Assembly (NCBI GenBank): GCA_023375675.1
Contig: JALQBC010000002.1
Span: 62,001-126,000 of the forward strand
Direction: 5' to 3'
DNA length: 64,000 nt
Source: Cytospora piceicola
Lineage: Eukaryota > Ascomycota > Sordariomycetes > Diaporthales > Cytosporaceae
Shown here: positions 15,012 through 57,580 of the stretch, piece by piece
Layout of the letters: the number at the start of each line of letters is the position of its first letter
How positions within the stretch are numbered: the stretch's first letter is position 1
Notes under the pieces: model-generated
Told to the model about the DNA's origin: nothing
What the model saw: the letters and a program-made list of their open reading frames with translations, nothing else
Database searches by the model: none
Translations under genes and position numbers: made by a program

Positions 15012-15044
15012 ATTTGTTCACTGATTTCGTATCGTACCCTCAAT
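15012..15044 (+). repeat. Left outer terminal inverted repeat, 33 bp
   Basis: Identical, 33 of 33, to the reverse complement of 57548-57580. It keeps CpA and TpG (for example TTCACTG) and so was spared by RIP, unlike the DNA just inside. The host sequence outside ends AATTACCTG. Confidence 0.92.
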
Positions 15045-15270
15045 TTTTTTAGCGTATTAAGAGATCTTAAGTAATGCCTAAGTCTATATATATGCCAGGC
15101 AGTAGTCGTGCCTTAGTCCGTATATATCGTAGGGCTTTATTAGTAGTTTAGGGTACGAAGTAAGGTTATTTAGAAACCTTAACCTTAGGAAAAGGGGTAG
15201 GGGCTAAGGGAGGGGGGTGTTTAAAACGTATAGGCCTTAACAGGGCGGAAGGGTATGTGTAGCCTATGCT
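15045..15270 (+). repeat. Left inner terminal inverted repeat, ~226 bp
   Basis: The reverse complement matches 55691-55920 with scattered mismatches, most of them C/T or G/A transitions expected from RIP. It includes a conserved AGCGTATTAAGAGATC block, a GGGGTAGGGG/GGGAGGGGGG-rich stretch and GTGTTTAAAAC. Together with the outer 33 bp it makes a TIR of about 260 bp. Confidence 0.88.
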
Positions 15271-15595
15271 AATTATAGTCTATCGGATTTAAATAAGATA
15301 TAATCTTTATCCTTACGTTTAAACTATTTACCTTTTATATCTGATCTATAGAACGAAAATGTAACCGTACTTTAAGCTTATTCTAAAAGATAATAACTAT
15401 ACGGATTATAGTAATACAGATTTCCGTTACGATACCCGTTAGCATTTTACTATAAGCTTTAAGGAGGGTACCGTAGATATAGACGGCGCGTTAGTAGTAT
15501 CCGCTTCTCCGAGTTCGGCTATACTATATATATTATTAATCGCTAGTATCGGAGATCTCTTATAAACGTTAGATAATACTCTTAACCGCGTATAA

Positions 15596-16960
15596 GTTTA
15601 CTACGGAATCGAAAAGTCGGACTATAGAGAAATACGTATAAAAATCGCCCTTTACTTCCTTAAGATCGACTAATAATACGGAGCTGAGATAATAGTACCT
15701 GACCTTGCTAACACGCTTAATATCGTATAGGACCGGCCGAATATATTAAAGAAGTAGGCGAAGAATAAGTTCGGTAGCGGTTAGTAGAAAACTTAAAAAG
15801 TAACAGAAACTATAGTCCGGATTATCGAGTCTTTTTTTACTTAGTATAGTAAAGTCGTTTTACTAACTGGTGAGATTTTATATATAGTATTACTAAGTTA
15901 ACGACGTTACCCGAACTTCTTTATTAGAAACTGCTTCGATCGGCTATTATCTGAAAAAATACAGAAGGCCGACCGGGAACGGTATACAGAATACAGACTT
16001 TTATAGACTTAATATAACTATATCCTTCCGGGACTGCTCTCTTACGGCCTTTTCCCGGATAATAAGATCTTTAACGTATATAGTATACGGCTTAGAGAGA
16101 TCTTAAGAAGCTATTAGGCTAACGGAAGAATTAAAAGGGAGCTCTTAAAAAGCTTTAAGATAAGAACGCGAGAAGTCGACGGCTATAGTTTACTGCTAAA
16201 GCCGTAGAGTATTCAGGTTTGTAGGTATAGAGTCTTATACTATATAGATATTATAGTAAGCTTTTAGCTAGGTATAAGAATAAATTTCTACTACCGATAA
16301 GTATCGCTAAATAAGTTATAGTAAGGTATTACGTAGGCCCGATTTAAAGGTCGTAAACGGGGTAGGCTTTTTATATAGACTAGGTATACGACTAGTAGAG
16401 ATATAAATATATAAACATAAAAGGCTAGCCTTACTACGAGTTCTTAAACACTAAGACGGTTTTTTTCGTCGTCCGGGCTAGCTTTACTCTCTTTACTCTA
16501 TAACGCTTTAAGCGGCGAAGGTAGGAACTACTTAGAAAGGGTTAGCTGCGGTATCTCTCTTAACTAATATAACTATATAGACCCGATCTTATCGAGTATA
16601 GAATTATCTTTAGCCTGCCCCGACCTTAATAATAACGGTATTTTAATAGCTTTTACGATAAGCTATACTATAATTATAAGCTTTTCTGATTACTGGGATT
16701 ACCGTACGGCCGGATAATCCCCTATATCGCTTAGCTACCTAGTTAGTTGTAAAACCCCTTTTAGTTAATTAATAGTATATAGTTAAGTAGTATAGGTAGA
16801 GATCCGAGCTTTATAGCGTTTCGGGTTAAATAGCTTAAAAGAGACCGGCGACCTTTAACTAAAAGGTTATAACTAACGATATAAAACGAAGATCCTCGAT
16901 AAAGCTTAAACTTAGGTTTAGCCTTTATTATAATATACTTTTTTAGCGAAAGCCTTCGAA
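15596..16960 (+). pseudogene. Decayed reading frame, unknown product
   Basis: Reading TAA/TAG as mutated Gln or Trp, one frame runs 15596-16300 (about 235 codons) and a second, shifted frame 16420-16960 (about 180 codons). Composition is protein-like, with mixed basic and hydrophobic segments. It is the first gene inside the left end, the position where a Starship would carry its captain recombinase and other elements often carry a transposase. I searched by eye for a tyrosine-recombinase R..H..R..Y pattern and saw none that was convincing. The shift could be an intron or an indel. Confidence 0.45.
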
Positions 16961-17806
16961 TAAGTACTAAAACTAAGGAAAGAACTAATATATATAAAGA
17001 TTTAATATAATAAATTAAACTCGTAGTTAGTATATAAGACAGAGCGTATATATAATATATAAAAGTATCGAGTAGCGATATAAGCTAGGTTACTATAATA
17101 GGTACTAAGGTTATATATATAATTAACTAATAAGTATATTAATATAAACTAGGTTATTATACCTGTATATTAATATAAAATTAGAAGACTTAGTTCTGTT
17201 CGGGATGCTTTAGCTTTACTAAAATAAATACTTAGGTAGATTATATAATAGAAATTCTTCTTCTATTAATATACCTACCTACTTATAAGCGTTTATATCC
17301 GGGAGTTTTCCGGATCTTATACGTTTATTAAAACCCTTTAAACTAACACCGGTTATATATAAATAGTAAGCATTAGCTAACCGTAAGTATAGAAGATCGG
17401 TTTGTGTTCTCGTTTATTAAGACTTAAGTCGATTTACTAGAGCTACGTTACGAATCTAAGAAATAGAGTAGTAATTTCGAATTTCTAGGTTATACGTTTA
17501 GCTTAACCTGAAGATTAATTCGCCGCCTTTTGTACTTATAGACGAAGTTTGCGATAAATATACTTCTACTAGCGGATTCGAGAGCCTTATTATCTTCGAG
17601 AGTAAGTATATCGGCGTAAAAGTTTAAATATCTTTTTTATAAAGCTAAGTTAGTATTTTAACAGGTATTACTAGCTAAACCCGAGGTACCGACTATATAA
17701 CTTTATACCTATACCCTTTATTACTCGTATTTAACGCCTCGAACCTTACTATATAAAAAAGCTATATAGCTGTAAAAGCCGGTAAGGACTAGTTTACGTT
17801 ATAAAT

Positions 17807-18480
17807 CGAACCTTTCGAAGAGAGATAGACGAATAATAAGGACGATAATAAACAGTAGGAGCTACAGAAGGTAACTATTAACCGAATAACGAGTATCGAG
17901 GAGTTTTACAGATCCGTTAGAATAAGGCCCGAAGATTAATTAAAAAAAATATATTAAAGTACCCGACGCTTCTTATAGCTAGGTATCGCTTATTCTGACT
18001 TTCTTAGCGAGTAGTTAAAGAGCTATCTTTATAGACTAAAGCGACCCTTCGAGTTAGTTTTTAATATAGCGGACTATATTCAGATACTAGAGAAAGTATA
18101 CGGCGTTAGAATTAGCGAGTAAGCGGCGTCGAATAATCCCGGGACTAATTCCTTAGTTAAACAGCTATAGATTACCCTTCTTTAAAAAGCACCCGACGAG
18201 AATTTAACTAAACAATCCCGGTCTTTAGTCGAAGAAGTTATTACGAAACCGCTATATAGCGAAGCTACGTTCGATAAAATAAAATTAACGTTAACTAAAG
18301 CTTAGTAAGACTAGTATACCGCCTAAAAGGCTAACGCCGAAGAGATAAAGTTACTTATATTTTAGTTAGACTAACTCTTTACCGAGAACTTATTTTAAGA
18401 TATTATAATTAAAAGTTTACAATCCGAACTTACTAGTAAGTATAGTAAACGCCGGACTTACTAGTAACTATATACCTTAC
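17807..18480 (+). pseudogene. Decayed frame, coiled-coil-like, upstream of kinesin
   Basis: A frame of about 225 codons with only TAA/TAG interruptions is rich in Glu, Lys, Leu and Gln and looks helical or coiled-coil. The string VRIRP near the middle resembles the first beta strand of kinesin motors, but the residues around it do not fit well and the spacing to the P-loop (over 650 bp) is too long without introns. It may be a separate gene or an upstream exon region of the kinesin gene. Confidence 0.4.
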
Positions 18481-18638
18481 TACGGAAAACGATTCGCGTA
18501 ATAGCTCGCGTGCGTTTGTTACCTTCGAGGAAATATATAATAAGTAGAAAGAGCTAGAGTATAAAGCTAAGATAGGGAGTGTTAAATATTTATATAAGGC
18601 AGCCCCGGGAATAAAGTAAAAGTTTTTAATTCGACCGA

Positions 18639-19850
18639 GTGTTTTAGCTTTAAAGTAATAATTATAAGGTTTTCGAAAAGACACTTTCGCTTATCCGCTT
18701 AACGGCTATAGAAGGCGCTTATTCCGTTATTATAGCTTATAGTACTTTATTAACAGGAAAGTCTTATACCTTTAAAAAGACCGATAAAACATTATCGCCG
18801 ATACTTAGTATTATTTATCTTATAAGCTTTAAGATCTTCGATATTATCTTACTAGAAAGTACTATTTATATTAGTTCTCTTTATCTATATAACAGCGAGG
18901 TTTAAGATCTTTTAGTGCCTTAGAAGTAAAGGAAATTAGACATCCCTTCGATATAGAAGGTATAGATCCCGAACTCTAAGAATAAGCGTGTCGGGATAGT
19001 ATAAAACCTTATCTTTTTATTCGACTTTATAGTAGTAAAAACAATTATATCGCTAACGCTTTTAAACCTGTAAAGCTCTCGTAGTTATTACTTTTTTATA
19101 GTTAAAGTCGTTATTAATATAAGGGATCCGAGTAATACTAGTTTAAGACTACTTATATTTATCGACCTTGTAAGAAACGAAAGCCCGAAAGAAAGCGGTA
19201 TTAAAAGTTAATAGTTTAAAGAGGCTAGATCGATTAACGGTAATCTATTTAGTCTTAGCGAGATAATTCGCTAGTTACGATATAATCGAACACCTAATAC
19301 TAAGCAGTTAAAGCTTACTTAGCTTGTCGCCGGTGTTATAGGCCTCGGTTTAAATATAGCTATTAAGAACGAGGTGTTTTTACTAACGACGATTAACCTA
19401 GCAGATAAGTATATCTTAAAGAGCTTACGCACTTTAAAGTTTACCGAAACGATATATAAGATTTAGTTTACGGCGGCTTATCTTAGTTACAGACGTTACT
19501 AATAAAACTATAAAGGTAGCAGGAATATCGACTACGACTAAAAGGGCGTAAAGATATCCTTAAGCGATATATAGTACCTTTTTACTAATATAAATCGATA
19601 ATCGGATAAGTCTTTATTTAGTTATATTCCTAGCTTTAGTAGTAACTACTTTAAATAACCTATATATAAGAGCTATTTAAAGATCCCCTTTATATATTAA
19701 TATTATTTATAAGCTAGCAATATTCTATAATATTCAACCGAGAAATCTTAATTATAAGGTAACAGAGTTTATAGTTATAGACCTCGCTATAACGTCCTAT
19801 ACGCTCGTTTACGAGTTACGCCGTCGACCTTTTTAATAGGTACTAAAGTT
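18639..19850 (+). pseudogene. RIP-inactivated kinesin-like motor protein
   Basis: One uninterrupted frame, apart from about a dozen TAA/TAG codons and no TGA, reads through a kinesin motor domain to 19463 and about 130 codons beyond. Landmarks in the right order: NNYKVFEKT; AY followed by a P-loop that reads TGKSYTF (about 18753-18773); LYNSEV preceding DLLVP, as in the YNE-x-x-DLL segment of kinesins; switch I SSRSYYFF (from 19074), where H has become Y as CAC to TAC would give; switch II FIDLVRNES (from 19158); NRTPNTKQLKLT, matching the PYRDSKLTRLL region; and LKFTETIYKI at the neck. Kinesins are ATP-driven microtubule motors. The first strands of the motor (about 40-60 residues) are not in this frame. 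Every stop is explained by C-to-T or G-to-A change. It is certainly non-functional here. Which kinesin subfamily it derives from cannot be told. Confidence 0.83.
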
Positions 19851-20530: not shown

Positions 20531-20939
20531 TATAGTATTACTAGTTTATAACGACTATAGATTATAATTAGCGTAAATTAGGTAGTCTTATTAAAGAGCT
20601 TAAGTAGCGAAAATAGTACTAAAGTTAGGTAAAAACACTAGAACCTTATAGAATAATTTGTTAAGCTCTTTAAGAGATTGTATATACTATATATAATAGA
20701 TACTTATATAAAGCGGCTAAGTTAGTCTATATATTAACTAGTAACTTTTAGATCCGAGTCGCTAGCTAAAAAACTAATATATATATACAAGTCTATTAAC
20801 GCGGTAGCTAGTAGTACTAAACCTACTAACCTTACGTCGGTATCTTTTAAAAGGTATCTCGAATACTCGTTTTAATCACTTTTTTTACTTAGATAAAAAC
20901 AATATATAACGAAGTCTTACTGCCTATACTTATCCCGAC

Positions 20940-21290
20940 GTAATTAGACTTAAACATTATCCTTTTTTTATCTTTTTACCTTTATTTTTATAGCCGACGG
21001 TCGTTCGAGAGTATAGGTCTTTAGGCTTACTCTTAATTAACCTTAACGTAACAAGGCCGGTAGCTTTTAGTCCTTTATAAAGGTTACTCGCCTTTACGAT
21101 ACTATAATATCCGTAGGTAACTAAGACTCGAATAAACTCGCTACCTTTATCGAGGTAGGCGAGAAATACTTCGATTATAACTTTATAGAGATCTATAAGA
21201 TATTTTTTTTTCCTTACTACAGATAATGCTATCTTATCCTTAATATTATTCTTATACCCTCTATCTTTAGCACTATCCTTATTATAATAA
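20940..21290 (-). pseudogene. Decayed reading frame, lysine-rich, unknown
   Basis: About 110 codons on the minus strand read without any internal stop, which is remarkable in this RIP-mutated sequence. The product is Lys-rich and ends in a basic cluster (KNKGKKIKK) resembling a nuclear localisation signal. No family recognised. Confidence 0.4.
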
Positions 21291-21691
21291 CGCCGGATTA
21301 AAGTAATATCGAAGTATATAGTTAGGTTACTCGCTAGGCTGTTCTATCGATTCTATAATAGCGATTAGTAGATATAATAATAAATAAGGAATTATATTTT
21401 AACTATCTTTCTGTAGCTAAAACTAGCGAGATATCTGTAAATAAAAAGTACGATCTCGATATATAGCGCGTAACGTATAATCGACAGACCTTAAAGTAAG
21501 CTCTTCCTTTACCTACGTAAGGCGAGCACGACGAATTACAGCTTAAAGGCTATGATTTTATCCTTTAAGGTCTTAAAGACATTTCTCTAGATAAGGATAG
21601 CGCAGAAGAGGCGGTAGTTAAAGACTAGAAAAACTTTATAATAGTATTAAACGAATATTACCGTAAAGCTACCCCGGAGTAGGAAAACACT

Positions 21692-22820
21692 AATAATTTT
21701 CCTATTAACGATAAACTTATAGACTATAATATACTCGGTAATAACAGTACTTATAGTTACACGCCTAATAACGACGGGAAGGACTATAGCAATATCCTTA
21801 TAAAAGGCTCGGCTACTATAGTCGAGGATAATACTAGCGATAATCTAGATAATACGACTTACTATAATACCCTTTCCTATCCCGGTATAGAATACTACTA
21901 TACTAAAGACTCGTTTAAACACGTAGTTAAGATAATATTTAAATATACGATTCTTAAGTAGAAGAACTATCGGCTTACAGTCTTCGACTAATAAGGTTAT
22001 AAAGACTTCTACTAACTAATATTAAAACACGGGTTAAGTAAGACCGAGATTATAGATAAACCTACTATTTAAACTGTAAAAGAGCCTATTACGAATAAAG
22101 TTAATAAGTCTAACGCTCTTTAGCATTAGCTACGTTTAAGACTTAGCTCTACTAAGCTAATTAGGCCGTCTAGTTATAAGGCGGACTAGGAGAGAAGTAT
22201 CTCGAGAGCAGATATAACAGAGAATATTAAAGTATAGTCCGATAGACTATATACTTGAGAAGAGTTTAACGTAACTTCTAAACTTATTTATATATATATA
22301 AAGGCGAGAAATAGAAGACCTATACTAGTATTATATATTAAAGCACTAAGTTTAAACTATCCCGATATTAGTATAGCGAATAAGGATTAGGTTACTCGAC
22401 TACCTAGCGGTTAGCTAAAAGAGCTAAAGATTTTACTAAAGGATTAAGAAGCTAAAAGCGCTTTTAAGTTAGTAAGGAGTAGCTATACCGAAGCTCGTAC
22501 CGAAAAGCGAAGAGCGACCTTACCCTTTAATAATTACGGGAGAAGAAAGAAAGCCTGCGTACAGAATTATAGCAGCTTACCAGATAAAAATGCCCTGTTC
22601 TTTAATATTTACCCTAATCTAGATAATACTTTTAATTCCGAAAGAGAAAAAACTATAAATATTATTAAAACAGAGTAGCAGGCTAGAAGTTACCGGACTA
22701 AAGACGATGCCAGCTAATTATACGACGGACTATTAAAGATAGATATTAAAGTAAAGAAAAGTCACGCTACCCTACTTAAAATAGTTATTAGTGTTAGCGC
22801 TATAGCGCTACGATTTTAAA
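21692..22820 (+). pseudogene. Decayed reading frame, ~375 codons, unknown
   Basis: A single frame can be followed for about 1.1 kb. The N-terminal third is Asn/Asp/Thr/Tyr-rich, the rest mixed with basic clusters (RRKK near 22540). Stops are TAA/TAG, with one apparent TGA near 22255. No family recognised. Confidence 0.45.
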
Positions 22821-23400: not shown

Positions 23401-24783
23401 CCTGTCTAGTATATCGCGTATTCTACTAACTATTATTAGGCTTATAATGCTAACTCTGTTATAAATAGAGATTCTCCGGACGTAAAACTTCTGCCTACAT
23501 CTCTCTTTTTCTCCCTTAGTCTATACTATTTAACGCTATTAACGCTATTTTCTGTAGAAAAACGTAGACTAAGTATACTAATCGCGACGGAAGTCTTAAA
23601 AACACTTATCAGACAGCTAGTTATATTATAAAGGCCCTTTCGAAATAAACAGAATATAAGGGAGAATATAAATCCCGCGGGATGTATACCGCCGAATATC
23701 TTATTATTGCTATTACAGATATTATACGGTTAAAAACGCGAGCGAACGTTATAAGCGATACTCTTAATAAGCTACTAACCTCGTTTAAATATCTGTAACT
23801 TTAAAGCCTACCGTAGACGGCTAGCTATACGGCTCTAATACTTCGATTATAAGATATATAAGGGCTATAACCTATAGCTTACCTTTAACGAATCTAAACG
23901 TCCCCGTCGGCGCTCTTAATACTACACCCATTACTAATCGCTCGATAATACTAAGATCCGAAGAGCTTATTACAGTTATATACGTTATAGATCGATTATA
24001 TAAGACAGCCTACAGGTCTTTTATCTAAACTACTAGTAATATCCCCTATAGCCCTACGTCTTTTATCGAATATTCTACTCTAACTTTAACTCTGCGATAT
24101 CCCTCGCTTTATATAATCTACGACTTCTTACCTAATATGTTTATAAATCCCGGTTTATCTAACGTTTAGTCGGCCTATTTACGGTTAACTAGTATATTTA
24201 TTAGTCGAGTATTATAGCCGCTATACTAAGAACAGCTAAGGTATTGTAAAATTAAACGTTATAATTACCGGCGCTTATATTAAGGCAGCTTAAGAATTAA
24301 TCTAACTCTTACCTATCCTACTTTATAGTATAATAAGTACAGGTTTAACTAAGTAAAGCTTTAGTAGAATAGGTTAAATAAGTGAGTTTATTCGGCTTTT
24401 ATAGTAGATTAGAATATATAGTAATAGATGTATTTAATTAGTAACCCGAAGGGCCTTATTACGTAATTAAATCTCTCTCCCTTACGTAATCAGACTTTTA
24501 GATTTATCCCCCCTCTCGATAAACTAAAATATTAAGGAATTTTACGACAATTTCCACTTAACCTACTCTTACCTATCTTATAGGCTTTCTAATAGATTAA
24601 TTAATTATATAATAAGGCTTTAGTAGAATAGGAATATAATAGAATATATAGGCTAGAATTTATTTACCCCCGATATTATATAGGTTTAAGTAGGATTGTT
24701 TCCTAGCCTGTTTATATAAAGGTATGCTTTTATATAAGTACCTGTAAGGCGGGCGCGTCCTTTCTTATATACCTTTTTATATA
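23400..24783. other. Element interior, no frame I can defend
   Basis: AT-rich RIP-mutated sequence. Near 24360-24620 a 15-16 base segment (CTTTAGTAGAATAGG) occurs twice in direct orientation. This may be a spacer or promoter region ahead of the JmjC frame. Confidence 0.35.
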
Positions 24784-27258
24784 AACGAAAATCCTTATAA
24801 GCCGTTAGCGATAGATTATACTAATATTATAAAGACTAGAATAGATATAGAAACCGACTTTAATAGCCTTAAAGCGACTATTTTAAAGGCTTTTAAGTTA
24901 ATTAAAGAGCTTTCGTCTTCTCCTTAGTATAAAGGTCGATCCTTTATAAACGTTTTAAATATAAGTAACTTAGTACGGGCTGCGTTAACCTAAACCGAGC
25001 TTAAAGAAGCTAAGCTTTAAAGACTAAAATAGTATACCGAACAGTTTAATACGAAAGTAAAAGACGCCTGTAATAGCCGCTAAACAACCGTGTTATTTAT
25101 ATATAGGAACAGAATATTTATAAAGGCTAACGACGTATCTATATAAGCTACCTAAACAGCCCGTATTAATAATATCGACCTGCTAGGTATAACATTAAAA
25201 GACAGCGCCCGACAGTTATATACCGACAGAGAAAGGCCTTTATTAGCATCGATAATACTTAGCTATACAGGAACCGAAAAGAGTACGACCCACCCCCTTA
25301 CTAATAACGAAGACTTCGATATATATAATTTCGTTACTGCAAGAAGCTACTTTAATAACGGGAGAAATATAGCCTTTACGAAAAGCGATAGCTAAAACGG
25401 CAGAACTAAGACTTAACGCCGTAGCGAAGTACTAGAACTATCGGTAGAAATAAACAATCGTATAATACTATCGGGGGACGCGATTAAAAATATTAGTAAC
25501 CTTAAAGGCGTTATAGCTACCGGTACAGAACCGGTAAATCCGATATTAGCTATTAAGACAGGGTCTTTATCTATAAAGGAAATAAATAAAACACTAAACC
25601 GACTTTTTAGGCTAATAACCTTACCGTTAATAATAACGCGAGAGCAGATAAAGGCGAATCTAATAGCCAGACTTAAGGATCTGTATAATGATAACTAGTT
25701 ATAAGGGAAGATTAAATATAAAGGCCTACCCTTAGTTAACCTTCTTTCTATCCGGCGTTGTATAAGGGTGTTTTAAAAGCAGCACGGCGTACTGTTCGCT
25801 GTCGAATATATTAAAGAAGGAAAGTATTTAACGCTAAGAGACGTAAATATAAAAGGATTTAATTACCCGCTCTTCTATATAACGGATTAACGGCTAACCT
25901 AAAAAGAAGCCGACAGACTCGTTTAAGAAATAGCGGATTTTCTATTAACTATACCTATTCCGTATTATGTAGGCGATAGGTTTATAAATGATTTCGACGG
26001 AATTTTAAAAAGCGACCCTGTTTTACGTTGCTTACGTAATTTAAGACACGAATAGAAAGGTATTAATACAACGTACTTACACCTAAAGGCTAAGGGGTTA
26101 AGTATAGCTATCTACTATAAGGACGGGTTTTTACGGTTGTATAATATTATACTTACAGGGTATAAACTCTAGGTCTTTATAAATAATAACTTTAGTAAGG
26201 ACTTTAAGCGTTAGGTTACCGGCTTCGAACTCTCCGAAGGTTAATAAAACCGTATAAATATAAACGACTAGTAGCTCTGCCGTTTAAACTTCTTCTCTAT
26301 AACGTAAATGCTAGTAGACGAGGGTATAAAGTTCGAAGAGTATATTACTAGGCTTAAGGAGATAATTATAACTGTACCGAGGCAGTATTATTAGGTGCTT
26401 AACCTTACGGACTGCTTAATAATCTCTATTAATTTTATATTAAAAGGTAAGCTATAAAAGGGCTTAGATAGTTTACCGCTCTTCCGGAAGAGCCCTTTAT
26501 TTAGCCTTAAGGGACAGAAAGTTAAAGAAATACTAGCGTAAGCTTAAGAGGCAGGGTAAGGCGCGAGCTGTAACTAACTAGGCGGTGATAAAGACTAGTA
26601 GGAAGACTAACAGAAAGACTAGCTAAACTGTAAAATAACGTATAGAGTAAAACAGTTATCGATGGCGAAATAGCGTTCGTCGCAGAAGCGGAAAAGCTAG
26701 AGTAGGGGTTACCTTAAACGCTATTTAAAAAGGCTGAATTATTCTATAGGACGGCCACTAGCGATAAGCCCGGAAGTATAACCTTAACGACTGTATAAAG
26801 ACGTATTAGGTAATATACGAACAGAAGATAATGTTATAAACTTAAGACTAGCAACCTTAAAAATATCCCTTTAACAATAGTAAGATAAGTACTTTAAGGT
26901 TATCTGCGAACGCGAACCTTATTATAACCTCTCCTTTACTCCTTCTACTTAAAACGACGAGATCGCCGGTATTTTACTTACCCTGCAGAGCCGTTCTATA
27001 GTAAAGAATCTCTAAGATATTATTAAAAGCTAGAAAGGCTAAAATACCTGGCTTAAAAACCTTCTAAGAAGTATAAACGAAATAGAGAAGGAATCTCCCG
27101 AACTTTTTACTCCTCGTTTTATAAAGCTTATCGCTTAGTCTTTAGCCTAAGGCTGTCTTAACGCTTTAATAAACGTATAAGGTATACTAAGATTATTTCG
27201 TATTCTTAATAAGATATTCGGATACTTTAAACGGCTAAACTCCTTCTACTTTTAAAAA
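24784..27258 (+). pseudogene. RIP-inactivated JmjC-domain protein, ~825 codons
   Basis: A single frame runs for 2.47 kb with only TAA/TAG interruptions. Near codons 425-550 (26060-26430) the sequence follows the JmjC order: TTYLHLKAKGLS, then AIYYKDGF at 26107-26130 where the metal-binding HxD/E would sit (His to Tyr by CAC-to-TAC), YNIILTGYKL*VFI, then VPRQYY*VLNLTDC (from about 26374) and ISINF, equivalent to the PGxYHxxxNxxxxxxxNF end of JmjC domains with its second histidine. JmjC enzymes are Fe(II)/2-oxoglutarate dioxygenases, often histone demethylases. The N-terminal 400 codons and C-terminal 250 codons have no domain I know. The domain call rests on pattern order, not on intact catalytic residues. 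Confidence 0.62.
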
Positions 27259-32039: not shown

Positions 32040-32900
32040 ACTAACTAAAACGCGCTTAGTTACCTTTACCTTTTTTATTCTCGGAGATAGCTGTTTAAGT
32101 ATGAAATCCTCTTATATTCTAATCTATAGCCTTTTTAGACACTACTAAAACTTATTTAAATATCGCATTCCCTCTCTGCTTGATATAGCGGAGATAGATA
32201 TCGATAAGCTAACGTCGCTATAACTCGCCCTTTAAGCAATCCTTATTAAAGAGCGGCTTACCCCTTCCGACACACGCCGTTAAAAAAAGAATATAACTAG
32301 TTTTACGCCGATAGTAAACTTTTAAAGATTTAAGACCGGAAGAGACGACACCGATAAAGAGATCTATACCTTAAGTACCGATATTCTCCGGATAGCTGTC
32401 TACTATAGACTACTCTGTTAAGACCGAGAAGGGGTATAGATATAAAACGACTTCGTTAGCGTATATAAGAATCCTTAGTAATTAAAAATAGCTTTCGAAG
32501 CAGGTATCGTTAAAACTATAAAGTCTATTTAGTATAGTAGGGGTACCGGAAAGGATAAAAAGTATACAGGTATAGGCAGAAGCCTTACTATACTACCGCC
32601 GGCGGATATTATTAATATATAAAGGCCGCCCGCTGCGGGAATAAGCCTTTTTAAGATTACTTTAGAGTAGCCTTTAAACGATAATCCTTTTTTAGTAACC
32701 GTTAACGGCGTAAGTAATAAGGACGGTATCGTTATACTATCTATAAAAGCTTGTATTACTTCGAGTAAAAGACCTACATTACCGTCGTCTTCTACGAACA
32801 AAGTAGCGAATAACTCTTTATTAAAATCTGCGGCCGGTAATATAAAGATAAGGAAGAAGATAGGTATACTTAGTCCTTCTAAGGTAAAGAAGTAAACTTT
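32040..32900 (+). pseudogene. Decayed reading frame, plus strand, unknown
   Basis: About 285 codons with TAA/TAG stops only. The product is hydrophilic with KTGRDD and basic C-terminal clusters. A fully open frame of 152 codons exists on the opposite strand (32529-32987), but its Leu/Ile/Phe excess looks like the antisense shadow of this Lys/Asn/Ser-rich frame. Confidence 0.38.
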
Positions 32901-33169
32901 TATAAGGTCGTCTCCGGCTATTATATATCGTAAAAAAGACGCTAGTGCTCTTTCGAAGTCCGCGGCCTTAAAGGCTAACCTAAACATTAGCTTTACGACC
33001 TTTTAAAATCTACTTATAACGGCTAAGCTACCGTTTAAAAACGCGGTAACGTTATAGGCGTTTAAGGATACCGCGAACGTTATTATAGACTAAAGACGTT
33101 CTTTAGCAGCTAATACTAGTAAGCCTTTGTCTGCCTCGGATACGAAGATATACTATAACTTAAAGGAAT

Positions 33170-34200: not shown

Positions 34201-34359
34201 TACTATCTTTAAATATAGTAGACTCTTTTAATAGATAATTATTTTAATCCGATACTTGAATATCTGTAAAATACGCTATAGGCGTATATATTATCTAACT
34301 GCTTACCTTCTCTGTCGTCTGTAAATAGTATTACCTTATTAAGTTATCTTTTTAATTTA

Positions 34360-34760
34360 GCTCTTCTAATATAATATACCTTCGCGATCACTTACTTTTC
34401 GTTAGCAGGTAGGTATCTATAAGACCGATAACAGTTCGTTTACTATACTAGCTTACGAGAGGCCTTTCGCTTTAGATCTACTTAACGGCCCTTTAGCTCT
34501 TTCTACCTTTCTAAAGCACGATACGCTTTAACTACGAGGTTCTTTAGCGCCGTAGTAAGAATATCGATATCGTTGTCTTTTAAAAAGGTCGTAGCTTTTA
34601 GGTCGCGGTATATCTAGTTAATAAAACCGAAAGCAGCCTTCGCGTCCGACTCCTCGTTCTTAAAGCTTATTTCGTACTCCTTTACCGGCTTTTATTCCTT
34701 TTCGGCTTTATAGCAGACCGACTCGCTACTAAAAACTTAAGCTTTTTATACGTTTATAAA
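34360..34760 (-). pseudogene. Decayed reading frame, minus strand, unknown
   Basis: About 130 codons read on the minus strand as a mixed charged, probably helical protein (KNEESDAKAAFGF, LKDNDIDILTTALKNL). More decayed minus-strand coding may continue toward 36000. No family recognised. Confidence 0.35.
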
Positions 34761-36416
34761 AGATCTGCGCCTGTATATACAGGTATAGCGTTTATATATA
34801 TTATAAACGTTAGTAATTATATCTTTTACCGACTTAACTATTATAGCTGTAAACGTCTGTTCCTTTTTTAGATTTTTTAGCAGATATACGTTTCCTTTTA
34901 GCTCTGCGCGGCTACTACTAAAAAACTACTAAACCTAGCTAATTAGGCCCTAGAAAAAAGGAGCGAAAGCGGTATTATCCTAAACGTCGTACAGCTAGAC
35001 TTCTACCGAATATAGCCGAAAGTCCGAAGTATGTAAGCTATACGCTATATTACTCTTATAATTAATACCGATTATATAAGCTTAAAGGTCTTTTAATACT
35101 GTTACTTTATTGCGAAGTGTTTACGGTTAAGGTCTGTCTTTTAAGATATCTCGTAAGCTATTAGTCGATAGCAGAGTCGATTACGCTCGGCGGAAAAGCC
35201 TTTTAAGCTCCTTTATATTGTATCGGAGCGTTTCGAAAGACGGAGTAAGTTAAATTCGAGCGTTAAATAGTCGTATATCGCCGGAGTTAGTTTAGACGCC
35301 TACTACTTTTAAGTCTTTACCGCGGCCGGCTATTACGAAGGCTTAAAGGATAATAAGAAGTAAATATCTTAAAGCTAGTAATATATAGCTTATCTTCGCC
35401 TTACTATAGCGCTGCTAAATACCTGTTATATCGCGATCTTTACTAGTAACTACCTTATTTATATCGCTATCTATTTCGCCGTCTTGTACTTTATTATTAT
35501 ATACCTAGCTATCCCCGGTCTCTCGACGTCCGGCTTTCTTATAGTAGTAGCCTTTATTACTGTTAATATTAACGTTAATATTAAAACTGTTAGTTTAGAC
35601 TATCGGCATTCGCTTTTGTTAACGCTCTTTTTAACGGCTCGGTTTTACTAACCGGACTATTAGGTATTATCTTAAGTTACTATAAGAGTTTTAAAGTATG
35701 TATTCGAGGCAGACTAGCGTGTTTTCGGCTACTATATTGTCTACCTCGTTTTAAACGTCTCTTATTAATATATCGGCTTTTCTGTTTACTCTTTAGTAGC
35801 TTTAAGAGTTAAGGTTATCGCTGGCGAAGTCGATATTAAGTATTCTCTTATCGTCGGAATCTATCTCGGCGTATAATAGCTTCGCTACGTTAAGTATAGT
35901 ATTCTATAAGCCTTACGAAGGGTAAGAAAGTTATTGTAATTTCTAAACCGTGTTTCTTATTATAGCCGGTTATAGTAAAGCTTATATTTAGCTATATAAG
36001 TATTTAAGTAGGCTAGAGAATTCGATAAAAGAGTAAACGAAGATATTAGTAAAGTTTTAATATCCCCGCCCTTTATTATATTCTTTAAGTACGTATACTC
36101 GGCTATACTAGTTTATAAGGCCTTGTTTTAAGTATAGTATACCTAAGGTAAAAACAGTAAGAGAAGATTAAGAATTATTTATATTTAACTACGTAAAACG
36201 GTAAATATGAAAATAAGGCTTTAAAGTTAAAAAACATTTTTAGCTAAAAGTATAGCTTTAAAAGTTTAGCTGCCTTAGTCTTATTTTCACTAGCTACGGC
36301 TATAAAGAGTAAGACTATTTTTATATAGTCTGAATTAGATAACCTGCTCGATAATATTATATAGCCTGCTATCTTTATCTAAAAACATTATCTTCTTAAA
36401 GAGTAGTATCCCTTAG

Positions 36417-36440: not shown

Positions 36441-36809
36441 TAGAAGGCTATATACGGGTTGCTTCCTCTCTCTTACTAGGCTAAACCCTATATTTCTTAG
36501 CCTTATTGTCGAAATAGGCTTAGCTAGTAGGGCTTTAATTCCCGTATCGGAGAGTCTATATAAGGCTAAGGCTAGTTAACGTAATAAGGACTTAATACCC
36601 GTATTGAAAATTCCAGATAGGTTTATAGTTACTTAACGTATAAAGGAAAGGCTGCCTTATTTTAAGGTAGCGTTATCCTTACCTTACGTTAAGGTATTAA
36701 TAACCCTATCGACTAGTACTATCGGGGCTATAGCTGGTTAATATAATAAGGAAGAAGGGGTATTTTACTATAAAAGTAAAGTTTATAGCCGAGCTTATAT
36801 CTAAAATAC

Positions 36810-37785
36810 CTGTATTAGTATATAAGTTTTTAAGCTACTTACTTATTAATAGACCTATATAGATATACCTTCTTATTAGTAGACTAATAGTAATCCCGCC
36901 TTAAAAGGTATACCCTACTCTATTAAAAATAATAAAATATTAGGTAACGCTATCTATCGGCCTATCGGAATTCTCGGTAGATAATATATATTTACCTTTA
37001 TTTATACGGCCTGTTTAGCTAGTATTTAAGTAGTAAACTATATTTTTATTTAGTTTTTGTAAAAACTCGAGAAAGTCCTGCGAGTTATTAGCGGTACCTT
37101 TTAACTCGGTAAGTAAGTTATTAAAAATAAATATCCCCTTTTAGAAACTGTACTGTACGAAAGCGATATATACCGGTACGTAAGATAATAAGTAAAGATT
37201 AAGTATATATATATCGACGCCTTCCTCGTTTACCGTATTATAAATACTTCTTATATTTTCTAGATTAAGCTTTTTTATATCTAGCTTACTAAAGAGCAGA
37301 TTAAAAGGGTCGGGTTAGTTAATAGCTTTAACGGCAGGTATATTTAAAACGACTAGATCGTTTATATTAATATAATACTTCGTAAGTTATAGCTTCTTGT
37401 ATTAAGGGCGAAATCTATAGCTATATATTTACCCTCTTTATCCTTACCCTTTTTATTCTTAAAAGGACGAAAACGTATAGATTTACTATAGCCGAGACGA
37501 GACCTTTTAGCTTTAATAACCCCCTTTTTCTACTGCTTAATAGTATTAATTCCCGAAGCCGAGATTACTTTATCTTTAAGCACCTTATTTGCTTTACCGG
37601 TTTTAATAAAGCTATTTAAATCCTTTTCGCTTCTGTTATATATACAATTATTATTATCGTCGTTATCGTTTTTACTATCTTATCCGCTTTAGTCTTCGTT
37701 ATCTCTGTCGTCTTTATCGTTTTCGTTATCTTTATTATCGTTATCGCCGTCGTCTTATTTAAGCTTATCGTTGTTTTATAGAAGG
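36810..37785 (-). pseudogene. Decayed minus-strand gene with acidic linker, unknown
   Basis: Toward 37785 an Asp/Asn/Glu-rich low-complexity segment (about 37640-37785) leads into a basic segment and then, in another phase, a clean frame of about 185 codons (37370 to 36810) with a single-domain look (Leu, Asn, Tyr, Ile). The domain has no family I can name. Confidence 0.4.
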
Positions 37786-38489
37786 GTAGTCGGAGGCTCG
37801 TTAGTTTTACTTATATAAATATTAACTTCGAGGGGGTTTTAGTAATTATAAGTAGGTAACCTTTACAAAAGGCTTTAGCTTTCTGCCTTTACGTTAGTCG
37901 ATACTCGGCTTATTTCTTCCTGTACCTTCTTTTAATATTCGATACCGATATTTCTACGTTTAAGTCCGAAAGGTATATTCTTTAGCTCTTATTATATCCT
38001 CCTTCGATATTAAACCCCGATATTTCTACGTCTAAGTCCGAGATATATGTTTTTTAGCTTATAGTAAAAAACGTAATAAAACAGCTAACTTTTTATTAGG
38101 TAGATTAAATATTCCCGGAAGATTTTATTATACGCAGAAATTATATAATATTATAAATAATAAAAACCTTTTATTTATAAGCGTTAGCTTTACTCCCTTT
38201 ACGCCTTAAAGGAAATATGTTTAGTAATCTAAAAATATAAACAGGACTTACTTCCTTTACCTTCGGTATAACTTTACTATTAAAACTTACGGAATTAGAC
38301 TAACATAGTATATTTTTATATACCCGATTATCGCGGAATAGCCTTAAATTAATATTAAAAAACACTTCCTTTATTATAGCCTTAAGATGTTATAACTAAT
38401 ATCTTAAAATAATATCCTAATACGCTATAGATTTCGGCGACTAAATCTAATATAAGATAAGATCGAAAAACTTAATACTAAGTAAGTAA

Positions 38490-41349: not shown

Positions 41350-43808
41350 TAAAAGAAGTAACGAACTACCTAGTATATCCGTAGTAGAGAGCGTATAATA
41401 AAGGCCTACCTATATAATATAACGTAGTATATTTATAAGGGCGGATACCTTTTTTAAAAGGAGAGCTAAGGTATTACTTAGTATATTTAAGCTATAAACA
41501 CAATAGCGCCTTATCGGTATAGTAAGAACGCCGGTTTCTTTTAAAATGTTTTATAGTATGTAACACTACCCGGGATAAATAGGGATAGCTAACTTATTTT
41601 TTTTTATTTTTTTATTTTTTTATATATTAAATACTATATTATATAGTTTTATTTAAAAAAAAACGTAATATTTAAAATAGCCTCTTATAAAGGGTAATAT
41701 TAAGGCTATTACTAACCTCTTTAGAAAAAGGATCTTAAGGCAGAGCCTTCTTAAGGTTAAGGTTATTCTTTAAGGTACCCTCTTACATTAGTCTTCCGAC
41801 TTACTAGGTATAAAAAATATAAAAACCTGTTTTATTTAAAGGTATAGGAATTTAAAAAATAATATGTTTTAAAAAAAACCGGTGTTTTTAGCTATCTTTA
41901 AAAATAAAACGTCGGGACTAAAGCACGACTAGTCTAGATTATATAAGCCTAAAGAAGAGAACTATTTTAAGAAGGCTAATAAAGGTATATAGTTTTCCTA
42001 TAATATCTTTTTTATCTTCTTATACGACGAAAACAACTCGGATAAGCTTTAAATATATCGGAAGTGCTTATCTATCCGGAATTAGTACATTAAGTTTAAT
42101 ATATAATATTTCCCTAGTATATCTTAAACATTAAAGTAAGTAGGTAAAGATAGTACTTAAGCAGGGCTAGTTTAAGTGTATTTTATTAATAAAGTTTCTA
42201 TAATAATAAAACCTAGCTGGTATAGTTATTATATAGAGACTTTCTTATAACTATATAGTTTTATACGGTTACGCCTTTTACGCTATTACATAGGCTAAAG
42301 TAGGTAAGGGGTTATATAGTAGAGCTGCCTTATTATTTTTAAAGTTACGTTAAAGCCTCTGACTTTAACCTTTATTATACGGAGTACGTTATTTAAAAGT
42401 AATACAGCCTAAGTGTTATATATATAGGTTTAAATTTATCTGTAGATTAATAGCCTAATTAGGTAAGCGGTTAAGCTTACCGCCGGTAGGGTAGCAGAAT
42501 TAAGCCGCTTAGCTTATAAATAGATTATTATAGTACGCGGTAGTATAATCTTTACGGAAAGTTACTTTACTACTATAGCTATACTATATTTCTTTTAAAT
42601 AACTAGATTTATAAATACCTGTTTTTATACTTAACTTAATTAATACTATTATAAACTAAAATTAAAAAACTATAATTAAAATATTAAATATATTAAATAT
42701 ATTTATTATATATTTATTATAATATTATATTTATTTAATATAAATAAAGTACTTAATAGAGTTTAATAAAACGTAGGTGTATATTTAGAAAATCCGGAAA
42801 TACTAGGAAATAAAATCGAAATAGGTATAGAATTTTCTTATTAGGACGGGTACTTATTAGCGATAAGATAAGACTATACGAAAACTTTAAAAATAAGAAT
42901 ATCTTTTATACTCTTTTTTTAAGAAAGGAAAGACGTATAAATAAAAAAGTAAATTTATAGGTATAGTAAGTATAATATATAGTATTTTATAGTATTTTTT
43001 ATTTATTTTATTTACTTATAATAAGCTAGTAAATCGAGATATTCTTCCGATTTAAGTTATTATTACTCGGTTTTAAGTGTATATCTATTAACGATTTTTA
43101 ACTTTCCGCAGAGATTATACTGTCGCGCACTATAATTACTATACTAAGCTTTACGATACCTTTAGACTTAAAAAGAACAGATATAAGTAATACTACGATA
43201 GATTTAAACGATCGATCGTAATATGTATATATAAAGCTTATCTAATATTATCTATATTATTATATATTTAAAGGTAGGAGCGGGGAATAATTCTATCTGC
43301 TATATTTTAGTTTAATTAGATATAAAAGAACTTAATATACCGAATAATATCTTAGTATATTTATTAACTATATCCGCTAACACCTACTAATCTAATATCG
43401 ATCCGATATATTAAGAAGTAAAAGAAAAGAAATTATGATTTTACTGCTTTATAACATCTAATGGATATAGCTAACTTTAGATGTCGACCGATTAGCTAGT
43501 ATAATGCTTATATGTTACGCCTTTTTTCTTTCTATTATATATGTTACCGGCATCTATTAGGAGGTTAATAACTACGTTTACTGTATAGCCTTAAGTTTAG
43601 TATAAGGTAACGATACTTAGTATAAATTAGCTTAGACTGCTTAAGTAGCTATATTTTTCTGTCGGTAAGGCTTATAAGGATTTGCTTTACTAGTATTATT
43701 ATCGGGCTTATATAGAAAGTGTAAGTAAGGTGGCTATATAATTCCTTTATAAGAGGGCCGGAGGCTTTAGAAATCCGTAACGCCGCTGTTATCGATCGGG
43801 ATATAATT
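41350..43808. other. AT-rich element interior without evident genes
   Basis: This is the longest part of the element where I find no followable frame. It includes T-rich runs (41600-41625) and a nearly pure A/T stretch at 42655-42750. It may be a spacer, or coding sequence too decayed to see. Confidence 0.4.
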
Positions 43809-52744: not shown

Positions 52745-55393
52745 TTGTGTAAGCTAAGACTATACCTATTAAGTCTTTTAGTATGTTTTCGAGGCTGTAA
52801 AGAGGAGGAGAAGGTATTTTACCTAAAGAGCGTCTTAGGTATTAATAAGGTTATAAAGACTTTATCGGAGACGATACCGCTTAATATATTTAAGAAAGAG
52901 TTCTTTTATATCGCCGAGCTTTTCCGAAATTATAGTGATTTCTTAGCCGGCCGACGGCCGACGTAAAGCTACTACCGCGCCCGACGTAAAGGTAGTAGCT
53001 TAAGATAGCGTTAAAATACGTAATAAGGTTTTAGTTATAAGGGGGTATTAAAGATAACGGATAGCTTTGTCTTTGACCTTATATCGAATTTTACCGTTAA
53101 GATTATTTATATAAGCTGTATTAGTGTAAAACACTACTTTTTTAAGCTTTGTAAAAAATAATCTGTATTTAGAATATAACTCTTTAATTAGTTTACCGTC
53201 GAATTAAATATAGGCGGTCGAATTAGCGTGCTCTTTTACCTTCGAAACGTTACGGAATTTTTATTTATAGCTAGGTCTTAAGTAAAGAGTCGATTCCCGC
53301 TTTAACAGGTTATTCTTATAATAAGCAAATATATAAGTAGCTATATCCTTAGTCGTAAAGAATCCCGATATCTTTTTATAGCTATAAGGGTACGGGTAAG
53401 GCTTTAAACTAGTATATCCTTATAAATACTGTCTTATAGTAAACTTACTAAAAAAATAGTAACTGTAGCTCGGCTTTATAAAACACCTAAAGGTATACCT
53501 CTTTTTAGTATATAGTTACTTTACCTTCTTTATAATCTCTTCTTTATAGTCTTTATAGTATTGCTTTTACTACTTCGCGAGCTCTTCTTTATAGTCTTTA
53601 TAGTACTACTTTCTGTGCTTTACGAGCTTTTTTTTATAGTCTTCGCGATATTTCTTATTCTTTTTTAGAATCTCCTCCTTATAATCCTTATAGTACTGCT
53701 TTCCTTAATTCGCGATCTCTTTTTTATATTTTTTATAATACTGCTTTCCCCGCTTTACGATCTCCTTTTTATAGTTTTCGTAATATTTCTTACTCCTTTC
53801 CGTAATCTCTTCCTTATAGTCCTTATAGTACTGCTTTCCGTACTTTATAAGCTCCTTTTTATAGTCCTTACGATATTTCTTATTCCTTTCTAAAATCTCC
53901 TCTTTATAGTCCTTATAGTACTGCTTTCCTTAATTCGCGATCTCTTCTTTATATTCTTTATAGTACTACTTTCCCTGCTTTACGATCTCCTTCTTATAGT
54001 CCTTATAGTACTGCTTTCCTTACTTCGCCTACTCTTCCTTATAGTCCTTATAGTACTGCTTTCGCTATTTCGCCTACTTTTCCTTATAGTCCTTATAGTA
54101 CTACTTTCGCTATTTTACTATTTCGTCCTTATAGTCCTTATAGTACTGTTTTTTATATATAGCCTTAATTACTACTTTAATCCGTTATAACTATAGGATT
54201 TTAATTACTTTAAGTAGCGGGCTACGTTAGTTAATACTACGCTACTACTTCAGCTTATTAGGGACTGTTAGGATAAGGCCTAAGTAGTTTATTACGAGTA
54301 AAGTATTATTCCGATTATTACAGCTATTATAGGTTGTAAGCCCGGAAGAAAAAACTACTTCGGCGATCTGTATAACTAAAAAATAATAAATAACGTTTTA
54401 GTACTCTTCGGCCTTTTCGGCTAAGTAATAAAAGATATATACTTACTATAAAGGTAACCGTTTATATACGCCTGTTTTTAGATCTTTTTAAGCGATTAAA
54501 CTCTCGAAATATTATATAGGAATCTGCTTACTATTTTGTACTTTTTCCCTAGTAAGCTAACGAGATTTAACGCTATTAATACTAAATCCTAACCTATAAT
54601 AAATATAATAATGTTACTTATTATCTATAAGAAGTAACGCCTCGATATATAGTCTTCTCTTCGAAGGAAGCGGCTCTTTTATAAGTATAGGTATAATATC
54701 TAGTATTTATTTTAAGCTTAGTCGGAATATATTACGCTAAAATAGATTAAGGATAAGCTGCCTGATTTATTAAGCCTACTATTACGACGTCGATAGCTAG
54801 ATAATCGCTAACAGTTTATAAGAGACTGCTTTATTAGCGAGATTAATATATCTCTGTATAATCTATACGATTCCCCTTTTAAAAGGCTAAAGAGTCGATT
54901 CTTCTTAATAAAGAACGTGATACTATAAAAGCTTAGTAATATTATCTTATAGCTTTAGTAGACAGTTAGTCCCTTTTTAGTCCGGAATCCTGTTATACTT
55001 TAAGAAAAGTAGCGATATAAAAAGGTCTTCTTTTTTAAGGCCTTTATTATATAATTCTCGGATACTTAATTAGAAGATAGGTCGTTTAAATATCTTATAC
55101 GGCTTATTTCTTTAAGGTTACTTATTAGACGTATTCTTTTTAGCCTCGGCCTTTTCCTCTTCTTAATCCCTATCGTCCTTTTTATCTTCGTCTTCGTTTT
55201 CGTATTTTAAATCTCTTTTATTTAAGAACTCGACCTATGCTTTAATATACTTTAGCCTTATATCTACGGGTATAAGGTCGAGGTCTTACTTTTTTACTTT
55301 TTTATTAGCTAGAAGGTTAAGGTATAGCGCTTCTTTTATAGTGTCGAGGAGACTACTTAGATCCTTATCGTCGGAAGTAGTTATAGCAGACAT
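52745..55393 (-). pseudogene. Decayed ~880-codon gene with intact ATG and 15-residue repeats
   Basis: The start MSAITTSDDKDLSSLLDTIK at 55393 is intact. From there one frame continues leftward for about 2.65 kb with only TAA/TAG interruptions. After an acidic-basic segment (about codons 65-90) and a large globular region comes an array of about fourteen 15-residue repeats, consensus close to GKQYYKDYKEEIAKx (54150 to 53520). A C-terminal region of about 240 codons follows. The charged repeats should form a long helix or coiled coil. It is the last gene before the right inner TIR. A fully open 73-codon frame on the plus strand (52745-52966) is its antisense shadow. No family recognised. Confidence 0.58.
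53520..54150 (-). repeat. 45-bp minisatellite, ~14 copies, protein-coding
   Basis: Tandem copies spaced 45 bp apart, each containing CTTATAGTCCTTATAGTACT or a close variant, coding on the minus strand for a Lys/Tyr/Glu-rich 15-residue unit. The array stays in the frame of the surrounding gene. Confidence 0.85.
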
Positions 55394-55690: not shown

Positions 55691-55920
55691 ACAGCACAGG
55701 CTATATACACCCCTCCGCCTTATTAGGGCCCGTATGTTTTAAACACCCCCCTCCCTTAGCCCTTACCCCTTTTCCTAGGGTTAAGGTCTTTAAATAACCT
55801 CACTTCGTACCCTAAACCACTAATAAAGCCCTACGATATATACGGACTAAGGCACGACTACTGCCTAGCATATATATAGACTTAGGCATTACTTAAGATC
55901 TCTTAATACGTTAAAAAAAA
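55691..55920 (-). repeat. Right inner terminal inverted repeat, ~230 bp
   Basis: Inverted partner of 15045-15270. Blocks shared after reverse-complementing include ACGTATTAAGAGATCTTAAG and GGGAGGGGGGTGTTTAAAAC. Differences are mostly transitions. It stops at a run of eight A (55913-55920), exactly where the left copy joins the outer 33 bp. Confidence 0.88.
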
Positions 55921-56033
55921 CTAGGGAACGGCGGTAGGACCGCCTGCCGAAAAGGCCTTCCGTTAAGAAGGATAGGAAACTTAATAGCTACTTATTTAGA
56001 TAGTTAGATACGCTGCTTAAGCTGCTCCGGATC

Positions 56034-56068
56034 CGATAGAGTAACGCCTTTCGGGCGTTACTCTATCG
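56034..56068. other. Perfect 15-bp stem hairpin
   Basis: CGATAGAGTAACGCC and its exact reverse complement flank a 5-base TTTCG loop. The stem would be a stable hairpin in single-stranded DNA or RNA. It contains no CpA or TpG, so RIP could not have disturbed it. Confidence 0.85.
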
Positions 56069-56092
56069 TCTCCTCCGCAGCCTTAAGCGGCG

Positions 56093-56688
56093 AGATAATT
56101 AACTAACTAACTAACTTACTAGCTATTTTACTAACTAACTTATTAGCTAACTTACTTATATACTTACCTACTTACTTACTTACTTAATAACTATATAACT
56201 AACTTATTAGCTATTTTAATAGCTAACTTACTAGCTAACTTATTAGTTAACTTACTTATTAACTTACTTACTTACTTACTTACTTAATAATTATATAACT
56301 ACTTTACTAGCTACTTTACTAGCTACTTTACTAACTACTTTACTAGCTAATTTACTAGCTAACTTACTTACTTACTTACTTAGTTATTTATTTACTTACT
56401 TACTAGTTAATTTAATAGCTAATTTAATAGCTAACTTTCTAACTAACCTACTTACTTACTTATATACTTACTTACTTACTTACCTACTTACTTACTTACT
56501 TATTTACTTATTTAATAGCGAATTTACTTACTAGCTAATTTACTAGTAAACTTACTTACTTACTTACCTACTTACTTACTTACTTACTTACTTACCTACT
56601 TACTTACTTACCTACTTACTTACTTACCTACTTACTTACTATCTAACTTACTAACTAACTTACTAACTAACTTACTTATTTACTTACC

Positions 56689-56722
<34 letters not shown>

Positions 56723-56936
56723 TTTACTTATTTAATAGCGAATTTACTTATTAGCTAACTTACTAACTAACTTACTAACTAACTTACTTACCTACCTACT
56801 TACTTACCTACTTACTTACTTATTTACCTACTTGCTTACTTATTTACTTATTTAATAGCGAATTTACTTACTAGCTAATTTACTAACAAACTTACCTACT
56901 TATTTACCTACTTACTTACCTACTTACTTACTTACC

Positions 56937-56970
<34 letters not shown>

Positions 56971-56998
56971 TTTACTTACTTACTTACTTACTTACTTA
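56093..56998. repeat. (CTTA)n tetranucleotide array with CTAGCTAA variants
   Basis: About 900 bp of CTTA/CTAA/CTAG tetranucleotides, with AATAGCGAATTTACTTA interruptions recurring near 56515, 56735 and 56855. Those interruptions indicate a higher-order unit of roughly 120-220 bp. Confidence 0.9.
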
Positions 56999-57547
56999 AT
57001 TCGAATCTAAAGGCTTATATAAGCTTTCGGTAAAGAAGAAAGGAGGGAAAGGCTAGGGTTCGGGTTAAGAACTTAAGAAACCTAAGAAACTTAAGGAATT
57101 AAAACTATTAGCTTTAATAGTAAGCTTACCTTAAAGGCTACGATTTAATTAAATATACCGTTTAATAGCCTTTTTTTTATAGATTCAGATTTAGGTAGGT
57201 TCTTTTTAATTAGATTAAAACTCGAGCGTGCATCTTAGTTCGAACCTAAGGTCTTCCGTAAAGAGCCTTATCGTAATCGGTCTTATCGTAGGCCTTAAAG
57301 TGACCGTAAGCCTTCCGGCAGGCATTAAAAGGTCTTACAATCTCTAGTTCTCTTAGCCGTTCGACGGCTAAAATCACTGCTTTCAGCATCTAATCAAATC
57401 CGAGAAACGGGTGCTGCAGCGAATCAGCATGATTATAATTCAGAGCTAATCAGAATTAAAAACAGGTGGCATAAATCTCAAAGGCAACAATTTTTCTATA
57501 TGCTCGCCCGCCTTGTAAAACAAACATCAACCTTCCTAACGGAAGGC

Positions 57548-57580
57548 ATTGAGGGTACGATACGAAATCAGTGAACAAAT
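57548..57580 (-). repeat. Right outer terminal inverted repeat, 33 bp
   Basis: Exact reverse complement of 15012-15044. Host sequence resumes with TGACATGCATTC. Confidence 0.92.

What the first reader, a model, noticed from the sequence alone, without database searches (positions are those of the whole stretch)
15012..57580. A 42.6 kb giant element defined by a perfect 33-bp TIR, of no class I can name
Seen: identical 33-bp inverted ends, abrupt composition change, dense decayed genes inside, host genes undisturbed on both sides. Known: most fungal DNA transposons are a few kb; Starships are this large but are defined by a captain tyrosine recombinase and short direct repeats; Polintons are 15-40 kb with long TIRs and carry PolB, integrase and capsid genes. 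None of these hallmark genes was recognised. Inference: a large cargo-carrying TIR element, possibly undescribed, that inserted as a unit and was silenced by RIP.
Basis: partly seen in the sequence, partly recalled or inferred. Interest (0 to 1): 0.9.

Follow-up and report, generated by a model that had tools for sequence, protein, structure and literature searches.

The report
RIP-silenced 40-kb fungal inverted-repeat element
A roughly 40,000-base stretch of mutated, silenced DNA in a fungus-like genome looks like one large mobile element with matching inverted ends; it carries the remains of a kinesin motor gene and a JmjC gene, but nothing that identifies how it moved.

Summary
The perfect 33 bp is the outer tip of a ~258-bp terminal inverted repeat (TIR). 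The right TIR is split, 33 bp from its outer end, by a 1.63-kb high-copy repeat (55920-57547). Aligned with the left TIR, all 19 mismatches in the first 259 columns are transitions, so the TIRs were probably identical before RIP. The TIR was found nowhere else in the 43.6-Mb assembly. Strong RIP starts at the left TIR and ends 200-300 bp inside the right end. Four interior stretches, 24.9 kb in all, have no second copy in the genome. Without four dispersed repeats the unit is about 39.7 kb. It carries a decayed kinesin gene (E 1e-27) and a JmjC gene (E 2e-6). No Starship captain, reverse transcriptase, integrase, PolB, capsid or DDE transposase matched. Best reading: a large TIR-type DNA transposon with cargo, once duplicated, then silenced by RIP. 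Its mover and superfamily are unknown; the target duplication is at most 'TG' (1 in 16 by chance); no empty site could be examined.

The parts
15012..15270 (+). Left terminal inverted repeat, ~258 bp; outer 33 bp perfect and not RIPed
   Evidence: 19 of 19 mismatches to the right TIR in columns 1-259 are transitions
57548..57580 (-). Outer 33 bp of the right terminal inverted repeat
55693..55919 (-). Inner part of the right terminal inverted repeat
55920..57547 (.). 1.63-kb high-copy dispersed repeat with (TTAC)n core, inserted in the right TIR
   Evidence: (39 of 191 candidates scored); other copies begin near 55919/55920 and several end at 57539-57553
18597..19460 (+). Kinesin motor domain, RIPed, 15 in-frame stops; frame continuous from about 17.4 kb; class unresolved
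   Evidence: (97.3 bits, E 1.1e-27)
24781..26493 (+). JmjC-domain gene remnant; JmjC match at about 26257-26436
   Evidence: 21.4 bits, E 3.6e-4, stops as X; 28.6 bits, E 2.1e-6, stops as Q/W; cut-off 24
15566..16966 (+). First coding-like frame inside the left TIR, where a transposase might be expected; no family match, unusable structure model
21116..22807 (+). Coding-like segment by codon signal, no family match
32179..33090 (+). Coding-like segment by codon signal, no significant family match
34287..35594 (-). Coding-like segment by codon signal, no significant family match
36715..37988 (-). Two adjacent coding-like segments (36715-37371, 37386-37988), no significant family match
54929..55387 (-). 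Coding-like segment near the right TIR, no significant family match
20794..21111 (.). Solo LTR of a family whose LTRs lie about 11.9 kb apart elsewhere
41580..41896 (.). 317-bp dispersed repeat
42529..43136 (.). ~607-bp MITE-like dispersed repeat with inverted ends
15010..15011 (.). TG on the left side of the unit; possible 2-bp target duplication
   Evidence: 1 in 16 by chance
57581..57582 (.). TG on the right side of the unit; possible 2-bp target duplication
   Evidence: 1 in 16 by chance

Best explanation
One large DNA transposon with ~258-bp terminal inverted repeats and cargo genes (a kinesin, a JmjC protein and several unidentified genes), originally about 39.7 kb. Shown: the TIRs, their transition-only divergence, their uniqueness in the genome, RIP confined to the unit, and the kinesin and JmjC remains. 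Inferred: a transposase, its own or supplied by a partner, recognised the TIRs and inserted the unit, possibly at a TG; the unit then existed in at least two copies in a sexual cross, was mutated by RIP from end to end, and its other copies were lost. A 1.63-kb repeat entered the right TIR and a solo LTR and two short repeats lie in the interior; their order relative to RIP was not determined.
For: TIR match over 259 columns with 19 of 19 mismatches transitions; TIR at only these two places, 3 of 3 candidates scored and 2 exact 33-bp matches; RIP edges at or near the TIR ends; 24.9 kb of interior in four stretches matches only itself; kinesin and JmjC; codon signal in 13 segments against 0 in 4 simulated sequences.
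Against: No transposase of any known kind matched in six frames at E<=0.01 or in chosen frames at E<=10. Only one copy exists, with no empty site seen. The possible target duplication is only 2 bp. 11 of the 19 TIR mismatches are transitions outside the CpA/TpG context that RIP prefers (counted). The right RIP edge lies inside the inserted repeat, not at the TIR tip.
Confidence: 0.65

Rival explanations
1. A Starship whose captain has decayed beyond recognition or was deleted, with inverted repeats at its ends.
For: Size and many-gene cargo fit; Icarus, a 294-kb TIR-ended putative Starship without a captain, has been described (PMC9594970, passages).
Against: Genome-wide DUF3435 search found only two RIPed fragments, both on contig C51 (35 and 33 bits, 7 and 4 stops), so RIPed captains are detectable and none lies here. 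No Starship accessory family matched either. No direct repeat longer than TG.
Confidence: 0.12
2. Not a transposon: an AT-rich RIPed block of another origin, such as a centromere, an introgressed segment or a rearranged tract, whose inverted ends arose by a separate event.
For: AT-rich blocks of this size form some fungal centromeres (recalled, no call). Single copy; no transposase found.
Against: The ~258-bp repeat exists only at the two edges of the tract. An inversion with a staggered break would not be expected to leave 258-bp near-identical arms inside the RIPed tract (inference). Kinesin and JmjC frames and codon signal persist inside.
Confidence: 0.16
3. A virus-like element, Polinton-like or an integrated fragment of a large DNA virus, with inverted terminal repeats.
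For: Long inverted ends, size, and apparently intronless kinesin and JmjC frames; kinesins in some giant viruses (recalled, no call).
Against: No PolB, integrase, capsid, packaging ATPase or other viral hallmark profile matched in six frames at E<=0.01; the one coronavirus-nucleocapsid match (E 6e-4) is low-complexity noise by my judgement.
Confidence: 0.07

Closest known systems
ToxTA (formerly ToxhAT), 14-kb cargo DNA transposon of wheat pathogens (PMC12506042, passages)
   Same: TIR-bounded unit carrying host-type genes; 2-bp target duplication (TA there, at most TG here); RIPed copies with later nested insertions
   Different: 14 kb and 74-bp TIRs against about 39.7 kb and ~258 bp; TA target; different cargo
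Icarus, 294-kb TIR-ended putative Starship of Pyrenophora tritici-repentis (PMC9594970, passages)
   Same: Large, TIR-ended, no captain found
   Different: 294 kb; carries genes with DDE endonuclease domains and many retroelement genes; the paper's text has no mention of kinesin or JmjC
Starships
   Same: Large cargo-carrying units in filamentous ascomycetes
   Different: Defined by a DUF3435 captain as first gene and by direct repeats; neither found here
Polintons/Mavericks
   Different: No PolB, integrase, protease or capsid profile matched; no 6-bp target duplication

Membership tests
Class II TIR (DDE) transposon, superfamily open | Terminal inverted repeats at both ends | tested here: met
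   ~258-bp TIRs, right copy split by a repeat
Class II TIR (DDE) transposon, superfamily open | DDE transposase gene | tested here: not met
   No transposase profile in six frames at E<=0.01 or in chosen frames at E<=10; heavy RIP limits sensitivity, and a non-autonomous element need not carry one
Class II TIR (DDE) transposon, superfamily open | Target-site duplication | tested here: inconclusive
   TG on both sides, 1 in 16 by chance
Starship | DUF3435 tyrosine-recombinase captain as first gene | tested here: not met
   the two genome hits are on contig C51
Starship | Accessory genes such as DUF3723, patatin-like phospholipase, ferric reductase, NLR | tested here: not met
   No such Pfam family in six frames at E<=0.01
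Polinton/Maverick | PolB, integrase, capsid genes | tested here: not met
LTR retrotransposon | Reverse transcriptase and integrase between direct LTRs | tested here: not met
   Ends are inverted, not direct; no such profile; only a solo LTR of another family at 20794-21111
RIPed sequence | CpA/TpG depletion over the unit against the flanks | tested here: met
   0.019 against 0.141 and 0.138
Regional centromere | CENP-A chromatin, one per chromosome | not testable with these tools

The most novel reading that the evidence does not exclude
A founding member of an undescribed superfamily of ~40-kb fungal TIR transposons that carry their own kinesin and JmjC genes. The motor would favour the element's segregation, much as kinesins drive maize Ab10 (PMC12941216, passages), and the JmjC protein would counter chromatin silencing. 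Both roles are speculation.
Probability: 0.17. Interest if true: 0.85.

Novelty: new variant of a known kind. Interest (0 to 1): 0.55.

Why it matters
Most very large cargo-carrying elements described in filamentous ascomycetes are filed as Starships (from the papers listed). A ~40-kb unit with long TIRs and no captain would suggest a second kind of vehicle that can move many genes at once. The case also shows how a decayed element can be recognised: end repeats that differ only by transitions, a RIP footprint that covers the unit, and an inserted repeat that hides one end. A kinesin as cargo of a mobile element is unusual and could be tested for a role in segregation.

Tried and rejected
Considered: a 42-kb inversion with a staggered break duplicating 33 bp. 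Rejected because the matching arm is ~258 bp and lies inside the RIPed tract. Considered: nested ordinary transposons. Rejected for the tested part, because four stretches totalling 24.9 kb have no second copy. Caveat: only 39 of 83 and 39 of 191 candidates were scored, so a diverged copy of 31100-41580 or 53500-55690 could have been missed; one search also shows a weak 71% match of 33797-33970 to contig C66 and short matches of about 42436-42538 to several contigs.

Led nowhere: protein searches with the first frame and the JmjC gene found nothing at E<=0.01, although each scored only the ~8000 candidates sharing most words. The kinesin search returned 41 proteins, all carrying the kinesin Pfam domain and none closer than 28% identity. 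The kinesin class stays open: the best solved-structure hits are kinesin-14 type (KCBP 63.5 bits, KIFC3 60.7), but fungal heavy-chain and family-5 kinesins score alike (61-62 bits; the best, unnamed, 65). Structure models of two frames are useless (mean pLDDT 33), so no fold search was run. A first coding-signal model collapsed onto tandem repeats; the masked version was self-trained on the same sequence and its null is only first-order, so its counts are optimistic. PDB search of the JmjC frame gave one chance match at E 0.53. Whole-window tRNA and Rfam scans gave nothing. Seven paper searches listed no paper that I could recognise from its title or abstract as describing a kinesin/JmjC TIR element; I saw listings, and passages of PMC6431247, PMC9594970, PMC12506042, PMC12941216 and PMC12720139, no whole text.

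Full report
What is there. The window is bases 62001-126000 of contig C14 (2.14 Mb) of an unnamed 43.6-Mb assembly in 99 contigs. Between 15012 and about 57.3 kb the sequence is strongly depleted in CpA and TpG (0.019 against 0.141 and 0.138 in the flanks), the signature of RIP. RIP is a fungal process, so I take the host to be a filamentous ascomycete (inference; no species was identified). RIP in the unit is as strong as in the LTR family of the same genome (0.007-0.033 in the 15 copies measured, of 30 such loci fetched).

The ends. It is part of something longer. A 238-bp inverted match joins 15033-15270 to 55693-55930. A high-copy repeat begins at about 55919/55920 and in several other copies ends at 57539-57553. 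So the right TIR was cut 33 bp from its outer end by a 1.63-kb repeat with a (TTAC)n core. With the outer 33 bp and the inner piece placed side by side, the right TIR aligns to the left over 259 columns with one extra T at the insertion point and 19 mismatches, all transitions; beyond column 259 the similarity ends. By my count from that output, 8 of the 19 lie in the CpA/TpG context that RIP prefers and 11 do not. The two TIRs were therefore probably identical before RIP. The outer 33 bp stayed perfect because strong RIP stops short of both tips: the change-point intervals are 15020-15126 and 57286-57378.

One unit or many. Four interior stretches totalling 24.9 kb (15270-20780, 21200-24480, 24500-31100, 43960-53500) match only themselves in the genome. 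Dispersed repeats inside are a solo LTR (20794-21111), a 607-bp MITE-like element (42529-43136) and a 317-bp repeat (41580-41896), besides the 1.63-kb insertion in the right TIR. Without these four the unit is about 39.7 kb. Searches of 31100-43700 and 43960-56090 were saturated by these repeats (39 of 83 and 39 of 191 candidates scored), so a diverged copy of 31100-41580 or 53500-55690 is not excluded. RIP acts on duplicated DNA (established knowledge). A single-copy tract mutated from end to end implies that another copy once existed and was lost (inference).

Genes. Six-frame scans of the whole unit with stops as X found a kinesin motor at 18597-19460 (+; 97 bits, E 1.1e-27) and a weak JmjC. 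The kinesin frame runs about 2 kb without a change of frame, with 15 in-frame stops in the motor; of 18 kinesin matches in the genome it is the only one with more than one stop. Reading the stops of the JmjC region as Q/W gave 28.6 bits, E 2.1e-6, over the cut-off of 24. On the minus strand only two families matched, Transformer and coronavirus nucleocapsid (E 2.6e-4 and 6e-4), which I regard as low-complexity noise. A codon model started from the kinesin frame and then self-trained marked 13 segments above 12, against none in 4 simulated sequences. Several interior tandem repeats have periods that are multiples of three (45, 105, 72, 30, 27), which fits coding sequence. The other segments matched no family significantly. 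The first frame inside the left TIR, where a transposase might be expected, matched nothing, and its structure model is unusable.

How it most likely works. A transposase that binds the TIRs, own or borrowed, moved the unit; this is inferred, since none was found. A TG on each side is compatible with a 2-bp target duplication but has a 1-in-16 chance of being accidental. After insertion the unit was duplicated at least transiently, was RIPed, and lost its sister copies. The order of the short repeats relative to RIP was not determined.

What it is not, as far as tested. It is not shown to be a Starship: a genome-wide search for the captain family found only two RIPed fragments on contig C51, which also shows that the method can detect RIPed captains. 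It is not shown to be a Polinton or a retroelement: no such gene matched. RIP limits the sensitivity of all these absences; the kinesin and the C51 captain fragments are the only positive controls, since a planned control on a RIPed LTR element could not be fetched. A centromere could not be tested. The nearest published comparisons are ToxTA and Icarus (passages), which share inverted ends and cargo but differ in size, target and genes. Seven literature searches listed nothing that I recognised as matching; the library holds only open-licence papers.

Verdict. A large TIR unit is favoured at about two in three. Naming a new class would need a transposase or intact relatives.

Noticed in passing
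57583-57601: A near-perfect palindrome, ACATGCATT-C-AATGCATGT, lies 2 bp outside the right TIR tip; perhaps a target feature.
   Followed up: no
L080-L082 (G000 contigs C69:49748-50548, C60:152424-153263, C83:23152-23592): Low-scoring kinesin-like genes without stops on smaller contigs; the element's motor resembles them only weakly (tblastn E 0.08 or worse).
   Followed up: partly
55920-57547 and loci L057-L075: A high-copy ~1.6-kb repeat with a variable (TTAC)n array of several hundred bases in its middle.
   Followed up: partly
L078, L079 (G000:C51:181911-182709): The only DUF3435 (Starship captain) matches in this genome, two adjacent RIPed fragments.
   Followed up: no
53535-54152, 47772-48054, 37910-38053: Tandem repeats with periods 45, 105 and 72 bases, all multiples of three, inside the RIPed unit.
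   Followed up: no
L005-L034: An LTR family whose paired LTRs lie about 11.9 kb apart in many places, for example on C57, C18, C1 and C34, heavily RIPed.
   Followed up: no
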